Positions 21,918 to 60,461 of a DNA stretch of 64,000 bases are shown one piece after another. The stretch spans positions 806,001-870,000 of the forward strand of contig NZ_JABMLK010000002.1 of assembly GCF_013394855.1 (NCBI RefSeq). Reading direction: 5' to 3'. The position numbers and the translations under genes were made by a program. The notes beneath the pieces were generated by a model, which saw only the letters and a list, made by a program, of their open reading frames with translations, did no database searches and was not told the origin of the DNA. Positions within the stretch are counted from its first letter, which is position 1. Every line of letters starts with the position of its first letter. This stretch comes from Limnobaculum xujianqingii. Lineage in GTDB: Bacteria; Pseudomonadota; Gammaproteobacteria; Enterobacterales; Enterobacteriaceae.

Positions 21918-22194
21918 TTTAGCTCTGAGATAGTTTCGTCCACCATTAGTCCTGTGCCTGAATCAGCGCTTGTGCGGGTGGCCGAGCAAGAGGCGCTATG
22001 GCGAGCGCCTCCTGCACCTCCGCGCCTTCGCACACGAATCCAGGTCGCCTGATGGCGACTGCCTTCCTTCTTCATTCGGGCTTACGCACCGGCGCAGAGC
22101 CGCTCCTTACGTCGCTGCGCCTCGACTGACATCCATGTCAGTCGTGCTACCCTCATTCAGTCGTCAGCTGAATTCCAGTGCTCCTGAAGGTCAA
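21918..22194 (+). repeat. intergenic repeat family B, copy 1
   Basis: 277 bases that align along most of their length with 60110-60461. Shared blocks include AGTTTCGTCCAC, GGCTTACGCACCGGCGCAGA and CAGTCGTGCTACCCTC. Hairpins: 21991-21997 with 22004-22010 (sequence unlike copy 2 at the same place), 22044-22049 with 22054-22059, and 22124-22132 with 22135-22143. It starts one base after the recR stop codon. The rest of the 495-base gap up to htpG (22195-22411) holds only the htpG promoter and leader. Open frames inside the repeat are not credible genes. Confidence 0.88.
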
Positions 22195-22311
22195 AAGCTT
22201 AAAATCAAAAGACTAAGGTCAAAATATTAAAGGCGGAGGGACAAAAGCAGCTTCGTTGTTGTTACTTTAGCCGCGGTTATTATGTTTTTTCACCAATAAT
22301 CTCATCATTCT

Positions 22312-22340
22312 CTTGAAAAACCTCACTATGATCCCCATCT
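22312..22340 (+). promoter_or_regulatory. sigma-32 heat-shock promoter of htpG
   Basis: CTTGAAA (22312-22318), a 14-base spacer and CCCCATCT (22333-22340) match the sigma-32 consensus exactly. It lies about 70 bases upstream of the htpG start codon, as expected for this heat-shock gene. Confidence 0.92.
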
Positions 22341-22411
22341 GTTAACCATTCCCATAGAGTCCAGGGCATGTAGAAATCTGCCTGAGTAAAACCAAGTAAT
22401 TGAGGTAAGTA

Positions 22412-24295
22412 ATGAGCATGAAAAGTCAGGAAACCAGAGGGTTTCAGTCAGAAGTTAAGCAGTTACTGCATTTGATGATCCACTCTCTCTACTCCAATAA
22501 AGAGATCTTTTTACGTGAATTGATATCGAACGCCTCCGATGCGGCAGATAAATTACGTTTTCGTGCGCTTTCTAATTCGGATTTATATGAAGGTAACGGC
22601 GAGCTTTGCGTGCGGGTGTCAGTTGATAAAGAGAAACGTACTCTGACGCTGAGTGATAACGGTATCGGTATGACCCGGGATGAAGTGATTGATAACCTGG
22701 GTACCATCGCTAAATCAGGAACTAAAGCGTTTCTGGAGTCGATGGGTAGCGATCAGGCAAAAGACAGTCAATTGATTGGTCAGTTTGGGGTTGGTTTCTA
22801 CTCGGCTTTTATTGTTGCGGATAAAGTAACTGTTCGTACTCGTGCGGCGGGTGCAGCAGAAGATCAGGGCGTTTTCTGGGAATCTGCAGGCGAAGGTGAA
22901 TACACCATTACTGATATCAGCAAAGCCGATCGCGGTACTGAAATTACTCTGCATCTGCGTGAAGGTGAGGATGAGTTTCTCGATGACTGGCGCGTGCGTT
23001 CCATTATCAGTAAGTATTCCGATCACATTGCTTTACCGGTAGAAATTCAGACTACTGAAGAGAAAGAGGGTGAAGAGCCAGTTGTTACCTGGGAAAAAAT
23101 TAATAAAGCTCAGGCACTGTGGACCCGCAATAAATCAGAAGTGACTGACGAAGAGTACAACGAATTCTACAAGCATGTTTCCCATGACTTTAGCGATCCG
23201 CTAGCCTGGAGCCACAATCGGGTAGAAGGTAAGCAAGAGTATACCAGCCTGCTGTATATTCCTTCTCAGGCTCCGTGGGACTTATGGAATCGTGACCATA
23301 AACACGGTCTGAAACTGTATGTACAACGCGTATTCATTATGGATGACGCCGAACAGTTTATGCCGAACTATTTGCGCTTTGTTCGCGGCTTGATTGACTC
23401 TAATGACTTACCGTTAAACGTATCTCGTGAGATTTTGCAAGACAATCGTATTACTCAAAGCCTGCGCAGTGCCTGTACTAAGCGAGTTCTGCAAATGCTG
23501 GAAAAACTGGCTAAGAATGATGCTGACAAATATCAGCAGTTCTGGCAGCAGTTTGGCCTGGTGTTGAAAGAAGGCCCGGCAGAAGATGGCGCTAATATTG
23601 AGACCATTGCCAGCCTGTTGCGTTTTGCCTCTACTCATAGTGACAGCGATGCGCAGACCGTTTCTCTGGCTGATTACATCGGTCGTATGCAGGAAGGTCA
23701 GGAGAAGATTTACTACATTACCGCGGATAGTTACGCAGCGGCGAAAAACAGCCCACATCTGGAACTGTTCCGTAAGAAAGGCATTGAAGTTCTGCTGTTA
23801 TCCGATCGCATTGATGAGTGGATGATGAGCTATCTGACCGAGTTTGATGGTAAATCTTTCCAGTCGGTTAGCAAAGCTGATGAAGCACTGGATAAACTGG
23901 CGGATGCGGAAACCGAAGAGCAGAAAGAGGCTGAAAAAGCGCTGGAACCTTTTGTTGACCGTACCAAAACGCTGTTAGGCGATCGGGTAAAAGAAGTTCG
24001 TCTGACTCATCGCTTAACCGATACTCCGGCTGTGGTGACGACTGATGCTGATGAAATGTCGACTCAAATGGCTAAATTGTTTGCCGCCGCAGGTCAGAAA
24101 GCGCCAGAAGTTAAATATATCTTTGAACTGAATCCGGACCATGCATTAGTTAAGCGCGCATCAGAAGTTACCGATGACGCAACGTTCGGCGAGTGGATTG
24201 AATTACTGTTAGATCAAGCGCTACTGGCAGAGAAGGGCAGTCTGGACGATCCAAACAGCTTTATCCGTCGTATGAACCAACTACTGTTGAAGTAA
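22412..24295 (+). CDS. htpG: HtpG, Hsp90-family chaperone
   Basis: A 627-residue protein with an N-terminal GHKL ATPase domain ([30 protein letters not shown]), then middle and C-terminal dimerisation domains as in E. coli HtpG. The start at 22412 is preferred because GAGG lies six bases upstream; E. coli numbering would begin at the second Met (22418). It is a cytoplasmic ATP-dependent chaperone that cooperates with DnaK. The upstream sigma-32 promoter and a downstream intrinsic terminator mark it as a single-gene heat-shock unit. Confidence 0.97.
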
Positions 24296-24320
24296 TGATG
24301 ACAGAACGTTAGCAGTACAA

Positions 24321-24356
24321 AACAGGCCGATAGTCCATGTCGGCCTGTTATTTTTT
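24321..24356 (+). terminator. rho-independent terminator of htpG
   Basis: A 10-bp stem (AACAGGCCGA at 24321-24330 with 24340-24349) is followed by A and six Ts (24351-24356), 26 bases past the htpG stop codon. Confidence 0.92.
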
Positions 24357-24549
24357 ACTCATTTGAAAACCATACGGGCAATAAAACCGGTAAGAAATTC
24401 AAAAATAGTATATTTATTTCAGTAAGTTAATATGTGTTTTTGTTTGTCAGGGCCTTTATCTCTGCGCAATCTGCCTCTTGAGCATCCTGACGTAGGGTGA
24501 TAAGGTTCGCTGGTTTTCCATAATTTATATATAAAAGCTAAAATTCTAG

Positions 24550-25206
<657 letters not shown>

Positions 25207-25225
25207 TTCCTGAATGATTTGAAGA

Positions 25226-25251
25226 ACAAAGGCGACTCAGGTCGCCTTTGT
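25226..25251 (+). terminator. rho-independent terminator of adk
   Basis: An 11-bp stem (ACAAAGGCGAC at 25226-25236 with 25241-25251) around TCAG, 19 bases past the adk stop. The stem ends in TTTGT and T-rich sequence follows. Confidence 0.85.
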
Positions 25252-25296
25252 TGTATATTAAACTGGATGTGTGTCAGATAATTTAAGGATAAATTA

Positions 25297-25542
25297 ATGG
25301 CTCAATATATTCGTCTGCTGATCGTTGTCGTATTGTTAGCCGGTACCAGCGCATGCAGTTCCGATTCTGAAGACGGACTAACGGAAGCGTTACCCGAGGT
25401 GTCGTCTTGTGTATCCCCTGAAGAAGATGATAGTACCGCTGACTGCGTTAATTATGCTGATCCGAATGAACGTTATAGTAGTGATTCTGTTGGGGTACAG
25501 GATGCGGTGGCAGATGCTGCAGTAGCTGATGCCGTCAATTAA
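25297..25542 (+). CDS. small acidic lipoprotein, function unknown
   Basis: An 81-residue protein with a lipoprotein-type signal (LLAGTSAC, Cys about residue 21) followed by Ser/Asp. The mature part is acidic, has two further cysteines (CVSPEEDDSTADC) and ends in an Ala/Val/Asp repeat (DAVADAAVADAVN). The lipobox is somewhat unusual (TSAC). It is not in the E. coli adk-hemH interval. I do not recognise it. The signal and good spacing after the adk terminator make it likely to be real. Confidence 0.6.
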   Translation: MAQYIRLLIVVVLLAGTSACSSDSEDGLTEALPEVSSCVSPEEDDSTADCVNYADPNERYSSDSVGVQDAVADAAVADAVN

Positions 25543-25656
25543 ATTAACCTCAGACTATCGCAACGGGTGTCATAATCAATCAAAACAGGACAGCAAGTCG
25601 TTGAGCGAGCCAGTATAATCTTAACTATTCGCTGCTAACCATTATCCCAGGAAATT

Positions 25657-26661
25657 ATGTCATCAGAATTCATAACAGATCGCACTAATTCCCCGCTGAA
25701 TCAGCCTAAAACAGGCATATTACTGGTTAATTTGGGTACGCCTGATGCGCCAACTGCTGCGGCGGTAAAACGATATCTAACCCAATTTTTACAGGATCGC
25801 CGGGTTGTCGATCTTAATCCACTGATATGGTCGTTGATACTGAAGGGTATCATTCTGCCGCGTCGGGCTCCCAGAGTGGCGAAACTCTATCGTGAAGTAT
25901 GGATGGAGGAAGGTTCCCCACTATTGGTTTACAGCCAACGCCAGCATCGAGCATTGGCCGCTCGTTTACCACAGGTGCCGGTAGAGCTGGCAATGACCTA
26001 TGGCTCTCCTTCCGTTAAGCAGGCTCTCGACCGACTCCAAAGCCAAAATATCAAGCGGCTGGTGGTCTTACCGCTCTATCCACAATACTCCAGTTCAACA
26101 ACAGCAGCTGCCTGGGATGCGCTTTCAGCCGAATTGGCTAATCGTCGTGACCTGCCAGAAATTTCGTTTATTCGTGATTACGCTGAACATCCTTTATATA
26201 TTGCGGCATTAGCGCGTTCTATTCAGATGTCGTTCGAACTTTATGGCAAACCAGATTTGCTGTTGTTCTCTTATCACGGCATTCCACAGCGCTATGCGGA
26301 TGAAGGTGATGATTATCCTCGACGCTGCGAAGCGACGACTGCTGCTGTTGTTACGGCTCTGGGACTGAAGCCTTCACAGTACAAAATGACTTATCAATCG
26401 CGCTTTGGTCGTGAAGTCTGGTTAAAACCCTATACCGACAAAACCATGCGGTTGCTACCTTCGCAGGGCGTTAAATCCATACAGGTAATTTGCCCGGGCT
26501 TTGCGTCGGACTGTCTGGAAACCATTGAAGAGATTGAACAACAGAACAGGGCTTTCTTTCTGGAAAATGGAGGAGAGAGCTATCACTATATTCCTGCATT
26601 GAATGATAGTGCTGACCATATCGATTTATTTGAGGCCTTGGTTACTGAACGCCGATTGTAG
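25657..26661 (+). CDS. hemH: ferrochelatase
   Basis: A 334-residue protein. It has the catalytic histidine segment [12 protein letters not shown] (about 207-218), the metal-path glutamate segment [15 protein letters not shown], and the N-terminal [13 protein letters not shown]. It inserts Fe(II) into protoporphyrin IX, the last step of haem synthesis, at the inner membrane face. It follows adk (with the small lipoprotein gene between) as in the E. coli order and is convergent with ybaL. Confidence 0.96.
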
Positions 26662-26671
26662 CTAATGGTGT

Positions 26672-26715
26672 ATAAAATAAAGGCCAGTGCGTGCCAAACG
26701 GCAGGTCACTGGCCT
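26672..26715. terminator. terminator between convergent hemH and ybaL
   Basis: A 9-bp stem, AGGCCAGTG (26681-26689) with CACTGGCCT (26707-26715). On the minus strand it is followed by TTATTTTAT, so it ends ybaL transcripts well; for hemH it is weaker. Confidence 0.75.
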
Positions 26716-26733
26716 GATAGTCATGGTAGAAGA

Positions 26734-28434
26734 TTAGATCGGGCAGCCTTCCATAATGGTATCTTTTTTACTTTCTCTGTCCTGCTTTAGCTCATCAAGC
26801 ATGCCTTGCGCAATTTCACGCTCACCCATAATCACATGGTTTGCACCACGCTCCGAAATGTATTCCACTTCGTCATCATAATGGGCGCGGGCAATAATCA
26901 TCAGGTCAGGGCGTTGAGAACGGGCATAAGCCACAATCTCACCAGCCTCATAACCATTAGGCGTGGTCACCAGCAGACAGCTGGCGCAGTCCAGTCGTGC
27001 CAGTGTCATAATTTCATGATTACCGGCATTACCCAATACGGTACTGATATCCCGCTCCCGCAAAATTTCTACTCGTGACAGCGAATTCTCAACCACCACT
27101 AATGGAATATCTTTATCGTGCAGGCGCTCGCAAAGAATATTACCAACCCGGCCATAACCAACCAGAATCACATGATTACACATATCCACCGGAACCTGTG
27201 CCACTTCTTCTTCCACCACTTCTTCAATAATTTGATCTTCAATGGTTTCAGTTTTCGCCAGATATTTCCCAATCAGGTTAAACACCAGTGGGTTAAGCAG
27301 AATAGAAAGAATTGCACCGGCCAGAATTAAACTCTGACCATCTTTGTTCAGAACCCCTAACGCAACCCCCATACTTGCCAGAATAAAGGCAAATTCCCCA
27401 ATTTGCGCCAGACTGGCAGAAATGGTCAGCGCGGTACGTTTTGAATGGCCAAACATACGTACAATCAGGAAAGCAGCGATAGATTTACCCAGTACGATAA
27501 TCACTAATGTACCGAGTACGGCTAATGGTTGATAGATGAGCGTCATTGGCTCAAACAGCATACCGACGGAAACGAAGAACAGTACCGCAAACGCATCGCG
27601 TAACGGCAGGGTGTTTTGTGCAGCCCGGTGGCTCAGCTCAGATTCGTTAAGCACCATACCGGCAAAGAACGCGCCAAGGGCAAACGAAGCACCAAACAGC
27701 TGTACAGAGCCGTAGGCGATTCCCATAGCGATAGCCAGAACTGAAAGGGTAAACAGCTCGTTAGAGCCGGTACCGGCGCTTTTTGCCAGTAACCATGGCA
27801 CTACCCGACGGCCCACGACTATCATCAGTACGATAAAGGCAATCACTTTACCAAGGGTTATGCCCAAAGAAATGGCCAGGTTGGTAAAGTCACTGTGTCC
27901 TTGCTGCATAATGCCAGTGATTGCGGGTAATAATACCAGCGCCAGCACCATGGCTAAATCTTCTACAATCAGCCAGCCAATTGCTATTTTCCCCCGCTGG
28001 CTTTCAATCAGTTGTCTCTCTTCGAGCGCTCGTAATAGCACCACGGTACTGGCGGTAGAGAGACAAAGCCCAAACACGATACCCGTCATCATATCCCAGC
28101 CTAATCCATAAGCCAGGCCCATACCGAGTAGTGTTGCGACGGCTATTTGCACAATAGCGCCAGGAATGGCGATCTTTTTAACTGAAAGAAGGTCTTTGAG
28201 CGAGAAGTGCAAACCTACACCAAACATCAGCAGGATAACGCCAACTTCGGCTAACTGATGGGCTAGGGCTTCATCAGCGACAAATCCTGGAGTGTGTTTA
28301 CCTGCGACAATCCCTGCAATCAGATACCCTACCAGAGGGGAAATTCGCAGACGATTAGCAATGAGGCCGAAAATAAAGGCCAGTACCAGGCCTCCGGCAA
28401 TGGTGGTAATGAGTGGTGTAGAATGATCCATCAA
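26734..28434 (-). CDS. ybaL: YbaL, KefC-like CPA2 cation/proton antiporter
   Basis: A 566-residue protein. Twelve or so membrane segments of a CPA2 (Na+/H+ exchanger) domain occupy about residues 1-390. A cytosolic RCK/TrkA-N Rossmann domain follows (VILVGYGRVGNILCERL, about 418-434, with NAGNHEIMTLARLDCASC). This matches E. coli YbaL, a predicted potassium or cation efflux protein related to KefB/KefC whose substrate is not settled. It holds the E. coli position between hemH and fsr. Confidence 0.93.
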   Translation of the reverse strand: MMDHSTPLITTIAGGLVLAFIFGLIANRLRISPLVGYLIAGIVAGKHTPGFVADEALAHQLAEVGVILLMFGVGLHFSLKDLLSVKKIAIPGAIVQIAVATLLGMGLAYGLGWDMMTGIVFGLCLSTASTVVLLRALEERQLIESQRGKIAIGWLIVEDLAMVLALVLLPAITGIMQQGHSDFTNLAISLGITLGKVIAFIVLMIVVGRRVVPWLLAKSAGTGSNELFTLSVLAIAMGIAYGSVQLFGASFALGAFFAGMVLNESELSHRAAQNTLPLRDAFAVLFFVSVGMLFEPMTLIYQPLAVLGTLVIIVLGKSIAAFLIVRMFGHSKRTALTISASLAQIGEFAFILASMGVALGVLNKDGQSLILAGAILSILLNPLVFNLIGKYLAKTETIEDQIIEEVVEEEVAQVPVDMCNHVILVGYGRVGNILCERLHDKDIPLVVVENSLSRVEILRERDISTVLGNAGNHEIMTLARLDCASCLLVTTPNGYEAGEIVAYARSQRPDLMIIARAHYDDEVEYISERGANHVIMGEREIAQGMLDELKQDRESKKDTIMEGCPI

Positions 28435-28609
28435 CGCTCCTTTTTGTTGTGGGGGAAAAGGGGACGTTTTAATTTTATGGTATTTATCGTACTTTTGCTT
28501 GGGAATATTTGCTATTTATGAAAAAAAGTATCAATTAATTACTGAATCGATTAAAGAGAGGCGTTTATACAATATTGAACCATTATCATCATGCTCCATA
28601 AGGTTTTTC

Positions 28610-28638
28610 CCTGCGCAGAAAAATTTTTTCTACGCAGG
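28610..28638 (-). terminator. hairpin downstream of fsr
   Basis: A 29-base inverted repeat with a single interruption (28610-28623 against 28624-28638) begins 15 bases after the fsr stop codon. The A/T-rich centre and lack of a following T-run make its efficiency uncertain. The rest of the 218-base ybaL-fsr gap shows nothing else. Confidence 0.55.
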
Positions 28639-28652
28639 AGTCAGCCAGATTA

Positions 28653-29870
28653 CTACACCTTATGCTCAATATTTGGTAACAGAGCGGTCAAAATACCCAG
28701 CAGAGGAAGGAAAGCACATATATGGTATACCGTCTCGATGCTGGTCTGGTCAGCTACATATCCTAGTGCTGCGGCTCCCAGACCTCCCATGCCAAAAGAG
28801 AGGCCGAAGAATAAACCGGAAACCATACCTATTTTCCCCGGAATCAGCTCTTGTGCATACACTAAAATGGCGGAAAAGGCAGAAGCCATGACCAGACCAA
28901 TAATCACGGTCAAAATGCCGGTCCAGTAGAGTGATGCATAGGGTAAAATGAGGGTGAATGGCGCTGCACCAAGGATAGAGGCCCAAATAACATATTTACG
29001 CCCAATCTTATCACCAACAGGCCCGCCAATGATGGTTCCGGCGGCAATAGCAAATAAGAAAACAAACAAATGTATCTGAGCATTTTGCAGAGTAACGCCA
29101 AATTTATGCATCAGATAAAAGGTGTAATAACTACTTATGCTGGCCAGATAGAAATATTTTGAGAAAATCAGTGAAAGTAGAATAAACAGCGAAAAGGCAA
29201 TGGTGCTATTGGGCAGTTTCTGTGCAGTTGACGGTCGTAATGGTTTTCCGCCATTACTGCGTTGCTGAGCCTGATACCAGCGACCGATTTGTAATAACAC
29301 CACAATAGCCAGTAAAGGCGCGATAGCGAACCAGGTTAATGTGCCTTTGCCATATGGGGCAATAAATGCTGCCGCCAGTAGAGGCCCCAGCGACGCGCCA
29401 AAATTGCCTCCAACCTGAAAGATCGACTGCGCCATGCCGTGGCGACCACCGGAAGCCATGCGGGCAACCCGCGATGATTCAGGGTGGAACACTGAAGAAC
29501 CTGTACCAACCAGCGCAGCAGCTAATAAAACCATATGAAAGTTTGAGGCATAAGCCAGCAATATCAGGCCAACCAGGGTAAATGCCATTCCCACCGGCAG
29601 TGAGAAAGGTTTAGGGTGTTTATCAGTATAGAGCCCGATTAACGGCTGTAATAATGAAGCGGTTAATTGGTAGGTCAGTGTAATTAAGCCTATCTGACCA
29701 AATGACAGTGAAAACTCCCCTTGTAGCATCGGGTAGATAGCAACAATCAGCGATTGCGTCATGTCATTAAGCAAATGGGAAACGCTGATAGCGCCTAATA
29801 TGCGAAATGATGTCTTGCGTGAATTATCCACTGCGGGTGGCAATGTATCGGTACTGGTTTGATTTGTCAT
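28653..29870 (-). CDS. fsr: Fsr, MFS efflux transporter (fosmidomycin resistance)
   Basis: The chosen start (MTNQTSTD) gives 405 residues, matching E. coli Fsr. A 19-residue longer frame has no counterpart there. The signature segments ISVSHLLNDMTQSLIVAIYP, GTGSSVFHPESSRVARMA and AQSIFQVGGNFGASLGPLL are near-identical to Fsr. Twelve membrane segments. It exports fosmidomycin in E. coli; the natural substrate is unknown. ushA, which lies next to fsr in E. coli, is absent here. Confidence 0.93.
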   Translation of the reverse strand: MTNQTSTDTLPPAVDNSRKTSFRILGAISVSHLLNDMTQSLIVAIYPMLQGEFSLSFGQIGLITLTYQLTASLLQPLIGLYTDKHPKPFSLPVGMAFTLVGLILLAYASNFHMVLLAAALVGTGSSVFHPESSRVARMASGGRHGMAQSIFQVGGNFGASLGPLLAAAFIAPYGKGTLTWFAIAPLLAIVVLLQIGRWYQAQQRSNGGKPLRPSTAQKLPNSTIAFSLFILLSLIFSKYFYLASISSYYTFYLMHKFGVTLQNAQIHLFVFLFAIAAGTIIGGPVGDKIGRKYVIWASILGAAPFTLILPYASLYWTGILTVIIGLVMASAFSAILVYAQELIPGKIGMVSGLFFGLSFGMGGLGAAALGYVADQTSIETVYHICAFLPLLGILTALLPNIEHKV

Positions 29871-29920
29871 GGTATTCGTTACTTTTGCTAAAGATGCCCT
29901 GGAACATAGCCCTAACCCAA

Positions 29921-29964
29921 AGCACAACCGATAAAGCCCAAAGCTGGACTTTATCGGTTGTGCT
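29921..29964 (-). terminator. long hairpin downstream of ybaK
   Basis: A perfect 16-bp stem (29921-29936 with 29949-29964) with a 12-base loop lies between ybaK and fsr. No T-run follows on the minus strand, so it may act as a processing or stability hairpin rather than an intrinsic terminator. Its symmetry creates look-alike open frames on both strands that are not genes. Confidence 0.55.
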
Positions 29965-30052
29965 TATGTTAAATGGGTGTGAAGCCAGTATAGCGTGGTG
30001 GCGGTGAGCAATAAAAGCGTTATTGTGTGCTAAATAGCCATGTTGCCGAGGA

Positions 30053-30535
30053 CTAACGACCTTCGGCTGCAATAGGGGCGAAAGTGGCAGAGGTCAAATG
30101 ACACAGGTCTGCTGGTGCCAGTTCAATATCTAACCCACGTTTTCCACCAGAGATATACATGGTAGGAAACGCTTCTGCTCCCGCATCGATAACAGTAGGC
30201 AGTCTTTTCTTCTGCCCCAGTGGACTGATACCACCAATCAGATAGCCGGTAACTCGCTGGGCCTGCATCGGGTCGGCCATTTCTACTTTTTTAGCCGACA
30301 GCGCTTTGGCCATTTTCTTCAAATCCAGCATACCGGAGACTGGTACCACCGCTACGGCTAACTGTTTGATGTCACCATTTATGCTGACTAACAGGGTTTT
30401 GTACACGCGTTTAGCATCCAGACCCAATTTATTTACCGCTTCATCACCAAAATTGGTTTCGTTAGGGTCGTGATCGTAAGGATGCAGTGTATGACTTACT
30501 TTTTGTTTTTTTAACAAATCAACGGCGGGTGTCAT
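30053..30535 (-). CDS. ybaK: YbaK, Cys-tRNA(Pro)/Cys-tRNA(Cys) deacylase
   Basis: A 160-residue protein of the YbaK/ProX editing family. It starts [23 protein letters not shown] and has [12 protein letters not shown] with the conserved lysine and [17 protein letters not shown]. It hydrolyses Cys-tRNA(Pro) mis-made by prolyl-tRNA synthetase. It lies between fsr and ybaP as in E. coli, minus ushA. Confidence 0.95.
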
Positions 30536-30581
30536 AGAAAATACCTTTCAAGCTAACTATCAGTAAAATCAAAATAATGGG

Positions 30582-49919: not shown

Positions 49920-49949
49920 TGACCAAGAACTGGTGAATCTCATTTATCG

Positions 49950-50330
49950 AATTCAGAGGACATTCCGGTCGTAAAATCTGAAGTGCTTATATAGGATTTG
50001 TGCTCGACCGGAAGACCGTCTGTACTTGAAATCGGAGTGCGTTGGGCCTGGCCGGGCTACGGGCACTTCGTTAGCTTACGCCAAGTCGACCCCCACGCCC
50101 GTCCCTCCCAACGATTGGCACTGCTAACAGACAGATAGAGCACTCCGTTGGCTTACGTAAAGTTGACCTTCACGCCGTCCCTCCCGACAATTGGCACTGC
50201 TAACAGACAGATAAAGCACTTAGTTGGCTTACGCCAAGTTGACCTCCACGCCGTCCCTCCCAACGATTGGTATTGCTGACAGATAGGGCACTTCGTTGGT
50301 GTGCATCAAGTTGATTCCCTTGGTATTTTT
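49950..50330 (+). repeat. intergenic repeat family A, copy 2, with tandem array
   Basis: The first 190 bases match the other family A copies: stem CCGGTCG/CGACCGG (49965-49971 with 50005-50011) around AAGTGCTTATAT, then GGGCACTTCG...GTCGACCCCCACG. From 50063 a unit beginning GCACT(T/C) and running through CCCTCCCAACGATTGGCACT is repeated with spacings of 77, 76 and 72 bases (starts at 50063, 50140, 50216 and 50288), the last copy partial. The units have diverged by a few percent or more. No gene is visible; the remainder of the 615-base gap (50331-50534) is AT-rich leader for ccdA. Confidence 0.88.
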
Positions 50331-51986: not shown

Positions 51987-52178
51987 ATACTGGCTCCATG
52001 TTTGATAGTATTTGGTAAGTATAAATAATGGTCTGTTATTGGCTGTTTTGTAAACATAAGGTCCAATAATCTTTTCCCTATTCCATTCAGCTATATCAAA
52101 TTCCATTTGGTGATTTCATTCGTTAGCAACGACTCTCTATAGTCAGGTTATTGTTTTGTTAAGAACCTGAAGGTCATT

Positions 52179-53615
52179 GTGGATTATTTACCCCTGTTTG
52201 CCGATTTGAAACACCGTCCGGTACTGGTTGTTGGCGGTGGTGAAATTGCTGCCCGTAAAATTGGCCTGTTATTAAGTGCCGGAGCGGAAGTGTTTGTGGT
52301 GGCTAAAGCGCTTGGTGCTGAGGTAAATAAACTGTATCAGGAAAAGGCGTTGCACTGGCTGGCTCAAGAGTTTGACACCCATCAGTTAGACGACATTTTT
52401 TTAGTGGTGGCTGCAACCAATGACAGCACGTTGAATGCCAGAGTATTTCAGGCGGCTAATCAGCGCCGTCGTTTAATTAATGTGGTGGACGATCCTGCGC
52501 GTTGCTCATTCATTTTTCCTTCAATTATTGACCGCTCACCGTTGGTCGTTGCGATTTCTTCTGGTGGTAAAGCACCGGTATTAGCCCGTTTGTTACGGGA
52601 GAAGCTGGAGGCGTTATTACCCGCCAGTCTCGGTCAGGTTGCTGATATAGCCGGTAACTGGCGTACCAGGGTTAAACAACAACTTCATTCATTAAGTGAA
52701 CGCCGTCACTTCTGGGAACGTCTGTTTGATGGTCGCTTTGCTTCGCTGATAGCGGCAAATCGAGTCGAAGAGGCAGAGGTTGAGCTTGAACAACAGCTCT
52801 ACCATCCCGCGTCAACAGCAGGTGATGTTACCTTGGTTGGCGCTGGTCCCGGAGATCCAGGGCTACTGACATTAAATGGGTTACGAGCCATTCAACAGGC
52901 CGATGTGGTACTGCATGATGCGCTGGTTACGCCAGATATACTGGAACTGGTACGTCGTGATGCCACGCTAATTAGCGTAGGAAAGCGTGCCGGAGCGCAT
53001 TCAGTACAACAGGAAGAAACCAATCAATTACTGGTTGAATTAGCCCGACAGGGTAAACGCGTTGTACGCCTGAAAGGTGGCGATCCCTTTATTTTTGGTC
53101 GGGGGGGTGAAGAACTGGAAGTACTGGTAAATGCAGGAATTCCCTATCAGGTTGTTCCGGGTATTACTGCTGCTGCGGGAGCGGCAGCTTATGCGGGAAT
53201 TCCTCTGACTCATCGCGATTATGCTCAGAGTATTACGTTTATTACCGGGCACTGTAAGCCTGAATCTGACGGTCTTAACTGGTCTCAATTGGCTCAGGGT
53301 CACCAAACACTGGCAATTTATATGGGAACGGTAAAAGCCAGCGATATCCAACAACAGCTGATAAATCATGGTCGTTCAGCGTCTACTCCGGTGGCAGTCA
53401 TTAGCCGGGGAACACGCAGCGATCAGAAAGTACTAACCGGCACGCTCTCACAGCTGCATGAGCTGGCCCGTGAAGCACCAACTCCCGCATTGCTGGTGAT
53501 TGGTGAGGTTGCGGCACTGCATCAGCGGCTGAACTGGTTCGGTGAATCTGCTCAACCATCATTAACATCACAGAATAGTCCGGCGCAGTGGCAGTCGGTA
53601 GTCAATCTGGCCTGA
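52179..53615 (+). CDS. cysG: siroheme synthase (CysG)
   Basis: A 478-residue fusion. The N-terminal precorrin-2 dehydrogenase/ferrochelatase has a Rossmann motif ([15 protein letters not shown]) and [14 protein letters not shown]. The C-terminal uroporphyrinogen-III methyltransferase has [32 protein letters not shown] and [12 protein letters not shown]. It makes the siroheme that CysI needs. The start is GTG ([10 protein letters not shown], aligned with MDHLPIF in E. coli). It lies 32 bases ahead of cysD and is probably part of a cysGDNC unit. Confidence 0.96.
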
Positions 53616-53647
53616 TGGCCTTCAGACAGAGAATTGAGGTATTGAAC

Positions 53648-54556
53648 GTGGACCAAAAACGACTGACTCACTTACGCCAACTGGAAGCAGAAAGCATTCA
53701 TATTATTCGGGAAGTGGCTGCTGAATTTGCTAATCCGGTCATGCTTTATTCCATTGGAAAAGATTCATCGGTAATGCTGCATCTGGCGCGTAAAGCCTTT
53801 TTTCCCGGTAACTTGCCGTTTCCTTTACTGCATGTGGATACCGGCTGGAAATTTCAGGAGATGTATCAGTTCCGCGATCGCACGGCCAAAGCTTATGGCT
53901 GCGATCTGCTGGTGCATAAAAATCCGGAAGGAGTAGCCATGGGAATTAACCCCTTTGTGCACGGTAGTGCGAAGCATACCGATATTATGAAAACCGAAGG
54001 GTTGAAACAGGCGCTGAATAAGTATGGTTTTGATGCCGCCTTTGGCGGTGCCCGTCGCGATGAAGAGAAATCCCGGGCCAAAGAGCGTATTTATTCGTTC
54101 CGCGATCGTTTCCATCGCTGGGACCCTAAGAATCAGCGCCCTGAACTGTGGCATAACTACAACGGGCAGATTAACAAGGGAGAGAGCATTCGTGTATTCC
54201 CGCTCTCTAACTGGACTGAACTGGATATCTGGCAATACATCTTTCTGGAAAATATAGAGATTGTTCCTCTGTATCTGGCAAAACCTCGGCCGATTCTGGA
54301 ACGTGACGGCATGCTGATGATGATTGATGACAACCGCATTAACCTGCAACCGGGGGAGGTGATTGTCAAACGTAAAGTCCGTTTCAGAACTCTGGGATGC
54401 TGGCCGCTAACCGGAGCGGTTGAGTCCGAAGCGGAAACCCTACCGGAAATTATTGAAGAAATGCTGGTATCAACCACCAGTGAACGTCAGGGGCGGGTTA
54501 TCGATCGGGATCAGTCAGGCTCGATGGAATTGAAGAAACGTCAGGGTTATTTCTGA
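53648..54556 (+). CDS. cysD: sulfate adenylyltransferase small subunit (CysD)
   Basis: A 302-residue protein starting at GTG 53648 ([20 protein letters not shown]), with GAGG plus T seven bases upstream; a 20-codon longer frame overlaps cysG and has no homologue. The ATP-pyrophosphatase motif [13 protein letters not shown] and [17 protein letters not shown] match E. coli CysD almost exactly. With CysN it makes APS from sulfate and ATP, driven by GTP. Confidence 0.97.
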
Positions 54557-54563
54557 GGAATAG

Positions 54564-56027
54564 ATGATGAGTGAAGTAATTAATCAGCCTGTTAACGTGA
54601 ATGAGGCTATTGCCAGACAAATCGCGGAACAGGGCGGCGTTGAAGCTTATCTTCACGCTCAGCAAAATAAGAGCCTGTTACGTTTTCTTACCTGCGGCAG
54701 TGTTGATGATGGTAAAAGTACCCTGATTGGACGATTACTGCATGATACCCGCCAGATTTATCAGGATCAGCTTACAACACTGCATAATGACAGCAAACGT
54801 ATCGGTACTGCCGGTGAAAAACTGGATTTGGCACTGTTGGTCGATGGCTTACAGGCAGAACGCGAACAGGGCATCACCATTGATGTGGCCTATCGCTATT
54901 TTTCCACTGAAAAACGTAAATTCATTATTGCCGATACTCCAGGGCATGAACAATACACGCGTAACATGGCAACCGGGGCATCCACCTGTGATGTCGCCAT
55001 TTTGCTAATTGATGCACGTAAAGGCGTTCTGGATCAGACGCGTCGCCATAGCTTTATTGCTACGCTACTGGGGATTCGTCATCTGGTGGTGGCGATAAAT
55101 AAGATGGATTTGGTGGAATATCAACAGTCGGTTTTTGAGCAAATACGTACCGATTACCTGACGTTTGCGAATCAACTTCCGCAGCAAACGGATATTAAGT
55201 TCGTACCGCTCTCCGCTCTGGATGGGGACAACGTCGCCAGTGTGGGAACTAATATGCCATGGTATTCCGGCGCTACATTGCTGGAGATTTTGGAAACGGT
55301 AAATGTGGTGGCAGAACAGCAGCAGAAGCCACTGCGTTTTCCGGTTCAGTATGTTAATCGGCCTAATCTGGATTTTCGCGGCTACGCGGGTACCTTGTCT
55401 TCTGGCGTGATTGAAACCGGGCAGGCAATTAAAGTGCTACCTTCCGGGGTAACCAGTCGGATTAAATCCATCGTTACTTTTGACGGTGAGCTGCAAAAAG
55501 CCTGGCCGGGAGAGGCAATAACTCTGGTGCTGGAAGATGAGATTGATATCAGCCGGGGGGATCTGCTGGTGGCAGCAGAAGATAACAGTTTACAACCGGC
55601 TACCGGAGCTACGCTGGACGTGGTTTGGATGGCGGAGCAGCCACTGCAGGCTGGTCAGAGTTACGATATCAAAGTTTCCGGTAAAAAGAGCAGAGTACGT
55701 ATAGAGCGTATTGTGCATCAACGGGATATCAATTCTCTGGAACAGCGTCCATCAGAGAGCTTGCCTCTGAATGGTATTGGTGTGGTTGAAGTGCTCTTTG
55801 ATGAACCGCTGTTGTTTGATAGCTATCAGACCAATCAGGAGACTGGGAGCTTTATCTTTATCGATAGATTAACCAACGTAACCGTAGGTGCCGGCCTGGT
55901 TCAGAAAACCGACACCGCCCAAAAACAGCAGACAAACTTTAACAGTGAATTTGAACAGGAGCTGTTCGCCCTGATTCGTCGTTATTATCCTCACTGGGAT
56001 ATCAATGGAACCACGAACAAAGGGTGA
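54564..56027 (+). CDS. cysN: sulfate adenylyltransferase GTPase subunit (CysN)
   Basis: A 487-residue EF-Tu-like GTPase. It has G1 [18 protein letters not shown]3 [12 protein letters not shown] and G4 NKMDLV, followed by two beta-barrel domains. Its GTP hydrolysis drives APS synthesis by CysD. It is not fused to CysC, which is a separate gene six bases downstream. Confidence 0.97.
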
Positions 56028-56033
56028 TGGCAG

Positions 56034-56630
56034 ATGGAAAATAATATTGTCTGGCATGCTCATCCGGTTACCCGGATTGAGCGGGAACGGATGAATGAAC
56101 ATGGTGCCGTCGTGGTTTGGCTCACCGGGCTATCAGGCTCCGGTAAGTCTTCTATTGCCGGTGCACTGGAGCAGGCGCTACATCATCTTAATGTTCATAC
56201 CTATTTGCTGGATGGGGATAATGTACGCCACGGTCTTTGTCAGGATTTAAGCTTTTCCGATCGGGATCGGAAAGAGAATATCCGTCGGGTGGGGGAAGTA
56301 TCCGGCCTGATGATGGATGCCGGATTAGTGGTGATTACGGCTTTTATCTCCCCTTATCGTGATGACCGCGAGAGCGTCTCTTTACGGTTACCGGCAGGGC
56401 ACTTTATTGAAGTGTTTGTTGATACGCCGATTGAGATTTGTGAACAGCGCGATCCGAAAGGGCTGTATAAAAAAGCCAGAAAAGGAGAGATCGCTCAGTT
56501 TACCGGTGTTGATTTACCCTATGAAGCACCGCTAAAACCAGATGTGCATTTGGATGGTCAGCGGCCAGTAGAAGAGCTGGTTGTTCAGCTTATTGGTTAT
56601 CTGAAAGGGCGAGGAATTATTCAAAGCTAA
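56034..56630 (+). CDS. cysC: adenylylsulfate kinase (CysC)
   Basis: A 198-residue protein with the P-loop [35 protein letters not shown] and the active-site serine region [10 protein letters not shown]. It phosphorylates APS to PAPS, the substrate of CysH. It is the last gene of cysGDNC, followed by a strong hairpin. Confidence 0.97.
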
Positions 56631-56650
56631 ATTCTTTGTTTTTTGATAGA

Positions 56651-56692
56651 AAACAAGGCCAGTATGGGTTCTGATTCATACTGGCCTTGTTT
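56651..56692 (+). terminator. terminator of cysGDNC
   Basis: A perfect 16-bp stem (56651-56666 with 56677-56692) around a 10-base loop, 20 bases past the cysC stop codon. The descending arm ends in TTGTTT, which serves as a short T-rich tail. Confidence 0.8.
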
Positions 56693-56828
56693 GCTGATAA
56701 CCTGATAATTCAGCCCCCGCCAAAACTTCATTATCTTTTTAGGCCTGTATATGCTATTCCCTTCAAGCTATTGATTCTGTATTTTAGATCTCATCCATCA
56801 GCGTATCCCCCGCTAATTAAGGAATATC

Positions 56829-57617
56829 ATGAAAGACTGGAATCCTGACCTCTACTTGCAGTTTGAAGCAGAAAGAACACGTCCTGCAGCAGAACTTCTG
56901 TCACGTATTTTTCATCCGGAAGCAAAACATATTAGCGATCTCGGCTGTGGGCCAGGGAACAGTACTGAATTACTCTATCAGGCCTATCCAAGGGCGAATG
57001 TGATCGGTGTGGATAGCTCTGAAAGTATGCTGATACAGGCTAAACAGCGCCTACCAGCCTGCCATTTTCAACTGGCCAATATGAGTACCTGGCGACCGGA
57101 TATCCCTCAGGATATTATTTACGCTAACGCATCATTGCAGTGGGTACCGGATCATGATGAATTGCTTCCCCATTTATTGCAGCAGCTTTCCGATCGTGGC
57201 GTTCTGGCCTTTCAGGTGCCGGATAACCTGGAGCAGCCTTCCCATGCATTAATGCGTAAAGTGGCAATGGAGGGAGTCTGGTGGGAGAAATACAATGAGC
57301 AGGTATTTAAACGCAGCCCGCTATTGAGCACGGAAGGATACTACGACTTGCTGGCTGGTCATGGCTATCAGGTTGATATCTGGCGTACTACCTTTTATCA
57401 CGTATTGCCATCGGTCTCTTCCATTGTTGAGTGGGTGAAATCAACCGGGCTTCGCCCGTTTCTTTCGCCTCTGAATGAGATGGAACAACAGCTGTTTTTA
57501 CTACAGTATCAGGCAGAGCTGGAGAAGGTGTTTACATCCCGTCAGGATGGGCATGTTTTGTTGCCTTTCCCAAGGCTGTTTGTCATCGCCAGTAAAAAGC
57601 GGTCGGTGATACATTAA
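56829..57617 (+). CDS. tam: trans-aconitate 2-methyltransferase
   Basis: A 262-residue SAM-dependent methyltransferase. The start MKDWNPDLYLQFEAERTRPA, the SAM motif DLGCGPGNSTELL and NASLQWVPDHDELLP match the Tam family. It methylates trans-aconitate, an inhibitor by-product of the citrate cycle, to its monomethyl ester. It stands alone between the cys operon and the convergent sbp gene. Confidence 0.92.
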   Translation: MKDWNPDLYLQFEAERTRPAAELLSRIFHPEAKHISDLGCGPGNSTELLYQAYPRANVIGVDSSESMLIQAKQRLPACHFQLANMSTWRPDIPQDIIYANASLQWVPDHDELLPHLLQQLSDRGVLAFQVPDNLEQPSHALMRKVAMEGVWWEKYNEQVFKRSPLLSTEGYYDLLAGHGYQVDIWRTTFYHVLPSVSSIVEWVKSTGLRPFLSPLNEMEQQLFLLQYQAELEKVFTSRQDGHVLLPFPRLFVIASKKRSVIH

Positions 57618-57629
57618 TTAAATAGTTAA

Positions 57630-57660
57630 TCGCCTGAGGCAAAACAAATACCTCAGGCGA
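57630..57660. terminator. bidirectional terminator between tam and sbp
   Basis: A 10-bp stem, TCGCCTGAGG (57630-57639) with CCTCAGGCGA (57651-57660), between convergent genes. Short AT-rich flanks on both sides; no long T-run. Confidence 0.7.
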
Positions 57661-57666
57661 TAATGA

Positions 57667-58656
57667 TTAGCGCTTGCTGATTTGATCGAAAATACCATCC
57701 GTTGAAAAATGTTCTTTTTGTGCTTTTTGCCAGCCGCCAAAAATCTGGTCAACGGTAAACAGGCTTAACTGTGGGAAGTTAGCAGAGAATTGCTTCAGTA
57801 CTTCCGGATCCCGTGGTCGATAGTAGTTTTTAGCGGCAATAGTCTGACCTTCTTTAGTGTAGAGATACTTCAGATAGGCTTCTGAGACTTCACGAGTGCC
57901 ATTTTTATCCACCACGCTGTCTACCACGGCAACCGTTGGCTCAGCCAGAATAGAGACGCTTGGCGTGACGATTTCAAACTGATCTTTGCCTAACTGCTCA
58001 ATGGCCAGTAGCGCTTCATTTTCCCAGGCAATCAAGACATCACCAATACCGCGTTCAACGAAAGTAGTAGTAGAGCCGCGAGCACCGGTATCCAGTACCT
58101 GAACATTGCTATACAGCGCTTTAACGAATTCCTGTGCTTTAGCCCGATCGTTATTATTATGCTTCAGTGCATAACCCCAGGCAGCCAGATAGTTCCAGCG
58201 AGCACCGCCGGAAGTTTTAGGATTTGGTGTAACTACATTCAGGCCTGGTTTAATTAAATCGTTCCAGTCATGTATTTGTTTTGGATTTCCTTTACGTACC
58301 AGGAAAACGATGGTTGAAGTATAGGGAGCGGAGTTATCCGGTAAATGGGTGAGCCAGCTCTTATTTAATTTGCCATGTTCTGCAATAGCATCAACATCAT
58401 AGGCCAGTGCCAGAGTCACTACATCGGCTGAGATACCGTTAATCACGGACGATGCCTGTTTACCTGAACCACCATGGGATTGCTTAATCGTTACCGTATC
58501 GCCTGTTTTATCTTTCCAGTAGGTAGAGAAAGCTTGATTGTACTGCTGGTATAGCTCTCTGGTAGGATCGTAAGAGACATTAAGCAGATGTATATCTTTT
58601 GCAGATACGCCTGTCGCAGTAAGAAAAAGCAGTATGCCGATATTCCAGTTACGCAT
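57667..58656 (-). CDS. sbp: periplasmic sulfate-binding protein (Sbp)
   Basis: The start at 58656 ([11 protein letters not shown]) gives 329 residues with a signal peptide ending VSA. The mature start [17 protein letters not shown] and the segments [16 protein letters not shown] and NYYRPRD match E. coli Sbp rather than CysP. It delivers sulfate to a CysTWA-type ABC importer that is not in this window. It lies next to the sulfate-activation operon, so a shared role is clear. Confidence 0.93.
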
Positions 58657-58831
58657 GGGTGGTTGCCTCATTAAGTGGTTAGGTAATTGACGTATTGAGA
58701 CTGCCAGAAAATGTAATTAGACAATAAAGAATAAAAAGATACTTTTTATAACAATAAGGAATATCTCATTTATTTACTTTTAGCCTACGGGGTAGCATGG
58801 TAGTGACCATGACAAATTGGGGGTGGGATGA

Positions 58832-59215
58832 ATGAAAGGATTTCTGCGTATATTACGCTATCTGGTTTTGGTGATAGCGGTGGTTGCAATATTTTTTACC
58901 TGGCAATGGTATTCATTGAAGAAAGAAGCTGAAGCGGCGTTCAACCATAATCCAGTGATTGAGCAATATTTAGGCAAAGTCAGCGTTGAAAAAATGGGCT
59001 TAAGCGTATTTGCAGCCCAGTGTCCTAGCGGCTGTGAGCATTACCTGATGAAGTTACGCGGTGAAAAGGGCAATGCGATGGCAGTATCGGATTTATCTAA
59101 AGGAAGTGAAGAGCTTTCTTATGCCATTTTGTGCCTGTCCAGCGGTGAGAATATTGCGCTAACTAAGGATGCGGAGCTGATTGTGGCAAATGGACGTGAG
59201 TCAGCCTGCCAATAA
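58832..59215 (+). CDS. small membrane-anchored protein, possibly Coa1/Tim21-like
   Basis: A 127-residue protein with one N-terminal membrane segment (about 8-25) and a periplasmic domain of about 100 residues. The segment NPVIEQYLGKVSVEKMG, then CPSGCEHYLMKLRGEKGNA, recalls the Coa1/Tim21-like fold found in some bacterial proteins, but the match is faint. It contains four cysteines (at about 64, 68, 110 and 126). It lies upstream of the LprI-family gene on the same strand. Confidence 0.55.
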   Translation: MKGFLRILRYLVLVIAVVAIFFTWQWYSLKKEAEAAFNHNPVIEQYLGKVSVEKMGLSVFAAQCPSGCEHYLMKLRGEKGNAMAVSDLSKGSEELSYAILCLSSGENIALTKDAELIVANGRESACQ

Positions 59216-59257
59216 GCAATACTGACTGGAAAAACATAAGTTAACTGAATAGAAATA

Positions 59258-59662
59258 ATGAAGAATAAACAATGGTTATATGCGGTGGTGTTTTCAGTTT
59301 TTAGCCTGAATGCTTATGCTGAACTGGATTGTAAAAATGCCAGAAATACACTGGAAATTAATGCTTGCGCCGAGCAAGAGCAACAAATAGTAGAAAAAAA
59401 GCTGAATCAAACTTATCAAGCGGTGATGCAGATGATGAGTCAGCCCGATTTGCCGAGTATGTCTTTTGCTGCGGTGAAGAAAGATTTGCTGGAGAGCCAG
59501 AGAGCATGGATAACGTTCCGCAAAAAAGATTGTGATGCGCTTTATGATTTCTATATAGACGGTTCAATTCGCAATGTGGTGTATATCTCCTGTATGAAAA
59601 AGCATGCTGAAAGGCGAATTGATGATTTAGATCGTTATCTTACCGGCTCCACTCTGAAGTAA
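59258..59662 (+). CDS. LprI-family (DUF1311) exported protein
   Basis: A 134-residue protein with a signal peptide (ending NAYAE). Its mature part has the DUF1311 cysteine and helix pattern: LDCKNARNTLEINACAEQE, LLESQRAWITFRKKDCDAL and an ending SCMKKHAERRIDDLDRYL. Mycobacterial LprI of this family inhibits lysozyme. In Gram-negative bacteria the function is mostly untested. It lies 42 bases after the previous small gene and 23 before cueR. Confidence 0.8.
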   Translation: MKNKQWLYAVVFSVFSLNAYAELDCKNARNTLEINACAEQEQQIVEKKLNQTYQAVMQMMSQPDLPSMSFAAVKKDLLESQRAWITFRKKDCDALYDFYIDGSIRNVVYISCMKKHAERRIDDLDRYLTGSTLK

Positions 59663-59685
59663 CGAATTGATAAGCGAGTGATGTT

Positions 59686-60096
59686 ATGAATATCAGTCAG
59701 GTTGCAGAAAAAACGGGTTTAAGCAGCAAGGCGATTCGTTTTTATGAAGAGAAAGGGTTGATCACTGCGCCCAATCGCTCACTGAATGGCTACCGAACGT
59801 ATAATTTGCGCAATATTGAGGAACTGACGTTATTGCGTCAGGCCCGGCTGGTGGGATTTACTCTGGAGGAGTGCAAAGAGCTGCTGGCACTATTCCATAA
59901 TGCCGATCGCCGTAGTGCAGATGTGAAAGCGCGCACGCTGGAAAAAGTCGCTGATATTGATAACCATATTGCTGAGTTGACGCAGATGCGGGAGCGATTG
60001 ATGGAGTTAGTTGAGCTTTGTCCGGGGGATAATGGGGCGGATTGCCCGATTATTGATAGTTTTACAGGGTGTTGTAAGCAGGGTAAGGAAGAGTAG
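59686..60096 (+). CDS. cueR: CueR, copper-responsive MerR-family regulator
   Basis: A 136-residue protein starting [25 protein letters not shown], nearly identical to E. coli CueR. The Cu(I)-binding cysteines flank the metal loop CPGDNGADC (about 112-120), and the C-terminus has CCKQ. It activates copA and cueO when Cu(I) binds. The copA promoter at 42097-42127 has its operator, but the gene itself is about 18 kb from copA. It is followed by a family B repeat. Confidence 0.96.
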
Positions 60097-60109
60097 TTTA
60101 AAAACAAAA

Positions 60110-60461
60110 TTTAGCCTTGAGCCAGTTTCGTCCACTATAAGTGCAGTGTACGAATAAGCTATTGCGCAAGTGGCCGAGTTAAGGGGGTTAGCGAACCCCC
60201 TTAACAATCCCGCGCTTTCGCCCCCAAATTCAGGTCGCCGTAGGCGACTTCCCTCCGCCTTCATTCGGGCTTACGCACCGGCGCAGAGCCGGAATACTCG
60301 CCTCATCCATGAGGCTCGGCCCTTTGGGCCAGCACTTCGTGCTGTTCAAAATTGCTCCTGCAATTTTGTCCGGCGTCGCTGCACCTCGACTGGCCTCCAT
60401 GCCAGTCGTGCTACCCTCGTTCAGTTGTCGGCTGAATTTCAGTGCTCAATGGGCAGGTCAA
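60110..60461 (+). repeat. intergenic repeat family B, copy 2, with extra hairpins
   Basis: 352 bases aligned with 21918-22194. The variable hairpin is here an 11-bp stem (60179-60189 with 60194-60204). Conserved stems: 60234-60239 with 60243-60248, and 60388-60394 with 60401-60407. A segment at about 60292-60373 absent from copy 1 holds four consecutive hairpins: 60300-60315, 60318-60330, 60331-60343 and 60347-60368. The copy lies between convergent cueR and ybbJ, starting 14 bases after cueR and filling this gap of 386 bases. Frames inside are artefacts. Confidence 0.88.

What the first reader, a model, noticed from the sequence alone, without database searches (positions are those of the whole stretch)
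21918..60461. Family B intergenic repeats with covarying hairpins
Copies at 21918-22194 and 60110-60461 share long blocks, but at the same site carry different hairpins that both fold (AGGCGCT/AGCGCCT in copy 1; an 11-bp stem with TTAAGGGGGTT in copy 2). In a second stem, copy 1 has GACTGAC pairing with GTCAGTC while copy 2 has GACTGGC pairing with GCCAGTC, an A-T to G-C paired change. Preserved pairing with changed sequence argues for selection on folded RNA. I do not recognise this family.
Basis: partly seen in the sequence, partly recalled or inferred. Interest (0 to 1): 0.72.

Follow-up and report, generated by a model that had tools for sequence, protein, structure and literature searches.

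The report
Scattered CsrB-clan-like structured RNA repeats
Two of several dozen scattered copies of a folded non-coding repeat lie in this bacterial DNA; the fold is real, is related to a known RNA whose job is unproven but which is suspected of binding the regulator CsrA, and in a sister genus it has moved around like a small transposon.

Summary
The two copies belong to a dispersed intergenic family: 44 blastn matches in the host genome, 33-53 in each of three other genomes of the genus. In 129 distinct full copies the stems covary strongly, with several Watson-Crick types at single pairs.

The folded strand is most likely the MINUS strand. Its three-way-junction core matches Rfam TwoAYGGAY (RF01731), in the CsrB clan CL00106: at least six other copies in this genome exceed the curated cut-off, window copy 1 scores just below (39.3 versus 43), copy 2 gave no match. 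A helix with tandem G·A mismatches recurs, and the P7 loop reads ANGGAN in 118 of 129 copies while its stem changes, the pattern of a CsrA/RsmE site.

A covariance model finds the fold in 26 of 149 sampled genomes of the family. In Pragia, copies carry IS4-type 18-bp inverted repeats, three with 11-14-bp target duplications: a MITE. Exact ends are absent in this genus.

CsrA binding, transcription and mobility here are inferred. No promoter-like site was found at either copy and total GGA is not enriched. New variant of a known kind.

The parts
21918..22194 (-). Copy 1 of the element between recR and htpG (both +); given on the proposed RNA strand
   Evidence: gene names from annotated relatives
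21935..21986 (-). P1: TTCGTCCAC / GTGGCCGAG with a conserved 1x1 mismatch; loop of about 34 nt
   Evidence: pair 21942/21979 is AT in 80, GC in 40 of 127 copies
21986..22015 (-).
   Evidence: 92% Watson-Crick over its 12 pairs
22044..22059 (-). P4 hairpin
22063..22167 (-). P5: irregular long helix; on the minus strand Watson-Crick pairs alternate with tandem G.A/A.G mismatches
   Evidence: e.g. 22064/22166 CG 64, TA 50; mismatches read from the alignment
22071..22149 (-). Match to Rfam TwoAYGGAY RNA, model 43-128, 39.3 bits (gathering 43)
22040..22176 (-). Match to model R1, 154.8 bits
   Evidence: this copy is one of the 39 that built R1
22091..22121 (-). P6 hairpin, GGA in the apical loop
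22123..22144 (-).
22157..22171 (-). P8: short TCAG/CTGA hairpin that competes with part of P5
22184..22225 (+). Tail: AAGGTCAAAAG-type degenerate short repeats
60109..60461 (-).
60179..60204 (-). P2 hairpin of copy 2 (TTAAGGGGGTT stem)
60290..60373 (-). Extra four-hairpin module in the P6 loop; two of its loops read ATGGAT and AGGA on the minus strand
60387..60408 (-). P7 hairpin of copy 2, loop ATGGAG (ANGGAN)
60230..60440 (-). Match to model R1, 129.4 bits

Best explanation
The two copies are members of a dispersed family of structured elements, folded as the minus strand, whose three-way-junction core is related to TwoAYGGAY RNA of the CsrB clan. SHOWN: many copies per genome; a conserved multi-helix fold; the Rfam cut-off passed by some copies of the same genome; a conserved ANGGAN loop in P7 and GGA in P6; IS4-type inverted repeats and, at three copies, target duplications in Pragia. 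INFERRED: copies were spread as IS4-driven MITEs or by an older route in this lineage, settled mostly downstream of genes, and are transcribed by read-through in the 3' regions of converging or neighbouring genes (no promoter-like site of their own was found at the two window copies); the loops then offer CsrA sites, so the transcripts act as CsrA decoys or place host mRNAs under Csr control. My estimates: conserved single-strand fold 0.97; kinship with TwoAYGGAY 0.85; minus strand 0.8; RNA rather than ssDNA 0.7; CsrA binding 0.4.
For: Covariation: own lineage and Pragia; across genera. TwoAYGGAY: G000 has 9 matches at E<=0.001, 5 over the cut-off, and a sixth copy over it, L014; CsrB and TwoAYGGAY share clan CL00106. 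P7 loop ANGGAN in 118 of 129 copies, C before it in 127 and G after it in 125, N positions free. P6: GGA in 97 of 107 copies without the module. P2 and P4 loops: GGA in 0 of 129. Across genera P7 and P6 loops have GGA in 24 of 24 rows of A2 (23 distinct). Passages read: SELEX consensus RUACARGGAUGU and RsmE ANGGAN hexaloop (PMC7652899); CsrA proposal and tandem GA for TwoAYGGAY (PMC4333381). Strand: on minus G.U 50 versus A.C 8 in A1, 26 versus 3 in A2. MITE ends and duplications in Pragia.
Against: No expression data; no sigma-70-like promoter on either strand at either copy (0 found, 0.5 expected). Copy 1 is below the TwoAYGGAY cut-off and copy 2 did not match; 6 of 14 genomes searched, Pragia and G048 among them, have no TwoAYGGAY match at E<=0.001 although R1 finds the fold there. 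The P6 loop is usually CGGGA, not AYGGAY. Total GGA per copy (7.29) is hardly above mononucleotide shuffles (6.70, mean z 0.29). P7 has nine pairs, most SELEX hairpins four or fewer (passage). CsrB is over its cut-off in 8 of 8 genomes, so no decoy is missing. Orientation relative to flanking genes is not conserved. My hand-chosen plus-strand pairs give GT 204 versus AC 167 before dropping the fixed T.G pair 21935/21986, 77 versus 167 after.
Confidence: 0.5

Rival explanations
1. A selfish or neutral mobile repeat. The stems are kept because the element must fold as single-stranded DNA or RNA during its own copying, or because unfolded copies harm the host. GGA loops are a structural habit, not a CsrA site.
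For: MITE features in Pragia; copies replaced and inverted at shared sites; single hairpins inverted in place (P7 in L086, P6 in L096, P2 in L009); tail-to-tail inverted pairs in G050 and G128; no promoter-like site.
Against: The loop bases A.GGA. are kept while stems turn over; G.U-type pairs and tandem G.A point to one strand, not to a cruciform.
Confidence: 0.27
2. A 3'-end element: it ends or protects transcripts of converging genes from either side, by structure alone.
For: Convergent pairs at 18 of 30 loci in G000 and 15 of 28 in G003, against 8 of 53 neighbouring pairs in the window, or 5 of 31 with a gap of 60 or more. At the copy-2 site Pragia has only a short hairpin.
Against: ORF-based gene calls are rough. 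No intrinsic-terminator-like site lies in either copy; the one hit near copy 1 (22430-22445) is inside the start of htpG. Loop conservation is then unexplained. Avoidance of promoters alone would give the same distribution.
Confidence: 0.15
3. The paired changes come from gene conversion, hairpin swapping and hairpin inversion among copies, without selection on folding.
For: Orthologous copies differ by whole-stem swaps, e.g. L055 and L081 in P7; hairpins invert in place.
Against: Swaps spread existing paired stems but do not create them; the fold and loops persist in genera whose copies blastn did not match.
Confidence: 0.05

Closest known systems
TwoAYGGAY RNA (Rfam RF01731, clan CL00106)
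   Same: Three-way junction with two GGA-loop hairpins, tandem G.A helix, same strand; several copies pass the curated cut-off.
   Different: Longer element (model of 266 nt, with P1, P2, P4 and tails); second loop mostly CGGGA; dozens of dispersed copies; mobile-element ends in Pragia. The passages I saw on TwoAYGGAY do not speak of dispersed repeats.
CsrB/CsrC-type CsrA-binding sRNAs (RF00018)
   Same: GGA in hairpin loops (PMC7652899, passages); same Rfam clan.
   Different: In this genome RF00018 has one match over its cut-off and one weaker, elsewhere; here many short copies without a shown promoter.
ERIC and other enterobacterial MITEs/intergenic repeats
   Same: Intergenic, multi-copy, strongly folding, sometimes at 3' ends (review PMC10969869, passages seen).
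   Different: Different length (ERIC 127 bp, abstract seen); covarying multi-helix fold with conserved loops; IS4-type ends only in Pragia.
IS4-family insertion sequences
   Same: Same kind of 18-bp terminal sequence as the Pragia copies; G048 DNA with that end is about 86% identical over 310 bases to E. coli elements annotated IS4-like (best rows).
   Different: No transposase in the element; 0 exact ends in the four genomes of this genus.

Membership tests
TwoAYGGAY RNA RF01731 | Score at or above the gathering threshold (43 bits) | tested here: inconclusive
   Window: no match at gathering; copy 1 39.3 bits, copy 2 none. Same genome: 5 other copies over the cut-off and a sixth (L014, 44.5).
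TwoAYGGAY RNA RF01731 | First hairpin with AYGGAY-type loop | tested here: met
   P7 ANGGAN in 118 of 129 copies; ATGGAT in copy 1, ATGGAG in copy 2.
TwoAYGGAY RNA RF01731 | Second hairpin with AYGGAY loop | tested here: not met
   P6 loop mostly CGGGA or CTGGA; GGA kept in 97 of 107 module-free copies. So I claim kinship, not strict membership, for the window copies.
TwoAYGGAY RNA RF01731 | Tandem G.A mismatches in a stem (PMC4333381 passage) | tested here: met
   P5 on the minus strand
CsrA-binding RNA | Binds CsrA | not testable with these tools
   Only motif agreement
MITE (IS4 type) | Terminal inverted repeats and target duplications | tested here: not met
   Met in Pragia (duplications of 11, 13, 14 bp read at three copies); not met in the window's genus (0 exact ends in 4 genomes; degenerate ends not searched).
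CsrB sRNA | Match to RF00018 | tested here: not met
   RF00018 hits in G000 lie at C1:1874098 and C1:184120, not at element places.
ERIC | 127-bp consensus | not tested
   Length differs; no alignment was run.

The most novel reading that the evidence does not exclude
A mobile element that carries CsrA decoy hairpins: dozens of copies, each with one or more CsrA-type loops, seeded by transposition at gene ends, so that a selfish repeat has become a distributed Csr regulatory layer across many Enterobacterales genera.
Probability: 0.28. Interest if true: 0.87.

Novelty: new variant of a known kind. Interest (0 to 1): 0.64.

Why it matters
TwoAYGGAY was reported in 2010 without a known function. 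Seeing its relative as the core of a high-copy, mobile, intergenic element gives dozens of natural copies, deletion forms and empty sites with which to test its role and the CsrA proposal. If right, transposition would be a way to spread regulatory RNA sites through a genome.

Tried and rejected
Plain blastn to phages, plasmids and E. coli genomes with copy 1: no match. IS200/RAYT or integron mechanisms: considered, not tested. tRNA-derived (SINE-like) origin: considered from a GTGGCCGAG resemblance; ARAGORN found no tRNA in the window and that stretch covaries as P1 instead, so dropped. Site-specific inversion at fixed breakpoints: six inverted site pairs read by eye show no common breakpoint. 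Pure in-place inversion: 31 of 123 orthologous site pairs are inverted (rows are not independent), and of 51 directed inverted comparisons only 15 are best matches, against 115 of 167 for same-orientation ones; so three sites look like true inversions and the rest like replacement. GGA enrichment over composition: not found. A transposase beside IS4-type ends: three open frames from 30 loci were checked and were host genes. Promoter-like and terminator-like sites: none in either copy. Empty sites for L014, L024, L025: looked for in twelve stretches, not worked out further; L014 proved to have a counterpart in G003.

Rows dropped: one search used the 30 fetched G000 loci (of 37 places) and 28 of the 30 fetched G003 loci (L099 and L100, subfamily C, left out). 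One search kept 141 of 175 chained elements (partial copies, copies over 420 nt and copies with N dropped), 129 distinct. My first P6 count (119 of 129) included bases of the inserted module; one search replaces it.
Full report
WHAT WAS CHECKED. The window is G000:C2:806001-870000 of a 4.76-Mb genome. An exact conserved pattern in the named species genomes hit Limnobaculum allomyrinae (28 of 30 stretches) and Pragia fontium (2 of 30). The genus of the window is therefore most likely Limnobaculum (inference), and G062 is Pragia: the element of L147 from G062 is identical to that of L069 from Pragia, flanks included. The two copies are at the stated places and carry the stated hairpins.

FAMILY SIZE. 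Copy 1 as a blastn query has 44 matches in its genome. Merging those under 500 bp apart by hand gives 37 places. The four genomes of the genus have 41, 53, 33 and 40 matches at E<=1e-6. Among 149 genomes of the wider family blastn found matches in 4, or 3 of 148 genera.

FOLD. I aligned 129 distinct full copies. The strongest covarying column pairs fall in helices. Single pairs run through several Watson-Crick types, for example 22127/22140 with CG 62, AT 39, TA 13, GC 7, and 22096/22116 with AT 58, TA 53, GC 11. Some high-ranking column pairs are linked haplotype differences and not base pairs. On a 39-sequence MAFFT alignment of the P4-P8 part, 97.4% of cells pair, 19 of 31 pairs change on both sides, and 0 of 500 shuffles reach the score. 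On 23 distinct rows from several genera 28 of 31 pairs do so; that alignment was fitted to the model, so it leans towards the structure. Both window copies fold better than shuffles as minus-strand RNA, z -3.25 and -6.07.

WHICH STRAND. Four observations favour the minus strand. First, in hand-chosen stems read on the plus strand, G.T and A.C mismatches number 204 and 167; without the fixed T.G pair at 21935/21986 they number 77 and 167, and without the fixed A.C position 21989/22012 as well, 77 and 124. A.C on plus is G.U on minus. Second, in alignment A1 on minus, G.U is 50 and A.C 8; in A2 26 and 3, though these structures were chosen with rules that allow G.U. Third, the irregular helix P5, which on plus has pyrimidine mismatches, has on minus a series of tandem G.A/A.G mismatches, and tandem GA is reported for a TwoAYGGAY stem (PMC4333381, passages). 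Fourth, the Rfam model matches the minus strand. The minus strand folds more stably in 113 of 133 copies, by 7.2 kcal/mol on average, but random pieces of the window differ with an s.d. of 13.6, so this alone is weak. None of this separates RNA from single-stranded DNA.

WHAT IT IS RELATED TO. Rfam found nothing in the window at gathering threshold. With permissive thresholds, TwoAYGGAY RNA (RF01731) matches the three-way junction of P5-end, P6 and P7: L024 49.4 bits and L014 44.5, over the cut-off of 43; copy 1 39.3; copy 2 (L029) none; in all 8 of 13 Limnobaculum-type loci scanned there without the subfamily C and Pragia ones or outside genera: L001, L002, L007, L010, L014, L018, L020 and L024 matched, while L005, L012, L022 and L029 did not (that is 8 of 12). 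A subfamily in G002 and G003 matches the full model at 48.6 and 47.6. Genome searches gave 9 matches in G000 at E<=0.001 with 5 over the cut-off; 8 of 14 genomes tried had a match and 7 had one over the cut-off; Pragia, G048 and four others had none; the 14 control genomes had none. That search missed L014, so its counts are lower bounds. CsrB carries the same clan label, CL00106. Weinberg and colleagues list TwoAYGGAY as probably an RNA, probably not cis-regulatory, from human gut, gamma-Proteobacteria and Clostridiales (PMC2864571, table passage seen); Rfam types it as cis-regulatory.

WIDER DISTRIBUTION. Model R1, built from 39 sequences of P4-P8, matches 26 of 149 genomes of the family, 25 of 148 genera, at E<=1e-4 and 19 of 295 genomes of the order, 9 of 100 genera, at E<=1e-5; both samples include the own genome. 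E-values of this model are rough. Of 13 outside loci printed and read by eye, several keep P1-, P2- and TTGACC-like parts too. blastn with one of them hits four Pantoea plasmids; the two opened lie between convergent genes.

LOOPS AND THE CsrA IDEA. On minus, the P7 loop reads A-N-G-G-A-N in 118 of 129 copies; C precedes it in 127 and G follows in 125; the N positions and the stem vary. This is the hexaloop described for RsmE, and 44 of 55 SELEX ligands of CsrA had six-base loops (PMC7652899, passages). P6 has GGA in 97 of 107 module-free copies, mostly as CGGGA; P2 and P4 loops have it in 0 of 129. The extra module adds an ATGGAT-type hairpin in 16 of 22 module copies and an AGGA hairpin in 14 of 22, by fixed text patterns. 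Against: total GGA is 7.29 per copy versus 6.70 in shuffles, P7 is long for a CsrA site, CsrB is over its cut-off in 8 of 8 genomes, and no promoter-like site lies at either window copy. A CsrA role for TwoAYGGAY was already proposed in PMC4333381.

MOBILITY. In Pragia the core is bounded in several copies by 18-bp inverted repeats such as TAATGCTTGTCAGTTAAG, and I read target duplications of 11, 13 and 14 bp at three copies, L141, L128 and L130. The end pattern occurs 12 times in G062, 18 times in G048 and 0 times in four Limnobaculum-type genomes. G048 DNA with this end is about 86% identical to E. coli elements annotated IS4-like. So Pragia copies are IS4-type MITEs. In the window's genus sites are old: 26 of the 30 fetched G000 loci have a copy at the orthologous site in another fetched genome, and copy 2 has one in G001. 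Yet 31 of 123 (non-independent) site pairs have the element inverted. Three sites look like true in-place inversion, the others like replacement by another copy. Tail-to-tail inverted pairs in G050 and G128 suggest one route: gain of an inverted partner and loss of the old copy. This is inference.

CONTEXT. By rough ORF calls, 18 of 30 loci in G000 and 15 of 28 in G003 lie between convergent genes, and 3 and 1 between divergent ones; the window background is 8 of 53 pairs convergent. At the copy-2 site G001 has an orthologous copy, G002 a shortened one, G003 a Family A repeat, and Pragia only a short hairpin.

PRINT. Searches for TwoAYGGAY (7 papers hold it, 5 listed), Limnobaculum with repeat (3), enterobacterial MITE terms (8), covariation with hairpin inversion (0), CsrA with repeats or sponge (1) and Pantoea or MITE repeats (31, of which 12 listed) gave no paper that by title and start of abstract describes this repeat. 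Only open-licence papers were searched, five were opened and only passages of them read, so this is weak evidence of novelty.

VERDICT. The covarying hairpins are real. The family is a high-copy, partly mobile relative of TwoAYGGAY RNA. Function remains unproven; CsrA binding is the best specific proposal.

Noticed in passing
window 15274-15435, 49960-50320, 63604-63770 (-): Family A repeats share a P1-like stem (TTCCGNCCG ... CGGNCGGAA) with Family B and one replaces it at the copy-2 site in G003; one window site has a tandem array of about 76-bp units.
   Followed up: partly
L004, L005, L012, L017, L022, L099, L117, L120 downstream of the element: Tails of copy-specific short tandem repeats, such as (GGGCAAA)n, (AAAAGAC)n, (GACCAAAA)n and AAGGTCAAAAG.
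   Followed up: partly
L068, L117, L099, L100, L060, L015: Tandem copies of the 5' half of the element before a full copy.
   Followed up: no
L149, L153, L156 (Pragia): Internal-deletion forms that keep both ends.
   Followed up: no
L097: A second four-hairpin module of different sequence sits in the P4 loop, as the usual one sits in P6.
   Followed up: no
L104/L118 and L109/L121 (G002): The same two-ORF insertion of about 1.2 kb interrupts the P4 loop of two copies; it looks IS3-type by eye, not HMM-tested.
   Followed up: no
L253 (G351): Elements about 1 kb apart lie near repeats that resemble CRISPR repeats (Rfam CRISPR-DR4, 28.9 bits, below its cut-off of 35) in a small-genome family of the order; the element scores 112 bits with R1.
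   Followed up: partly
G050 and G128: Copies often come as inverted pairs joined at their tails, within a few hundred bases.
   Followed up: no
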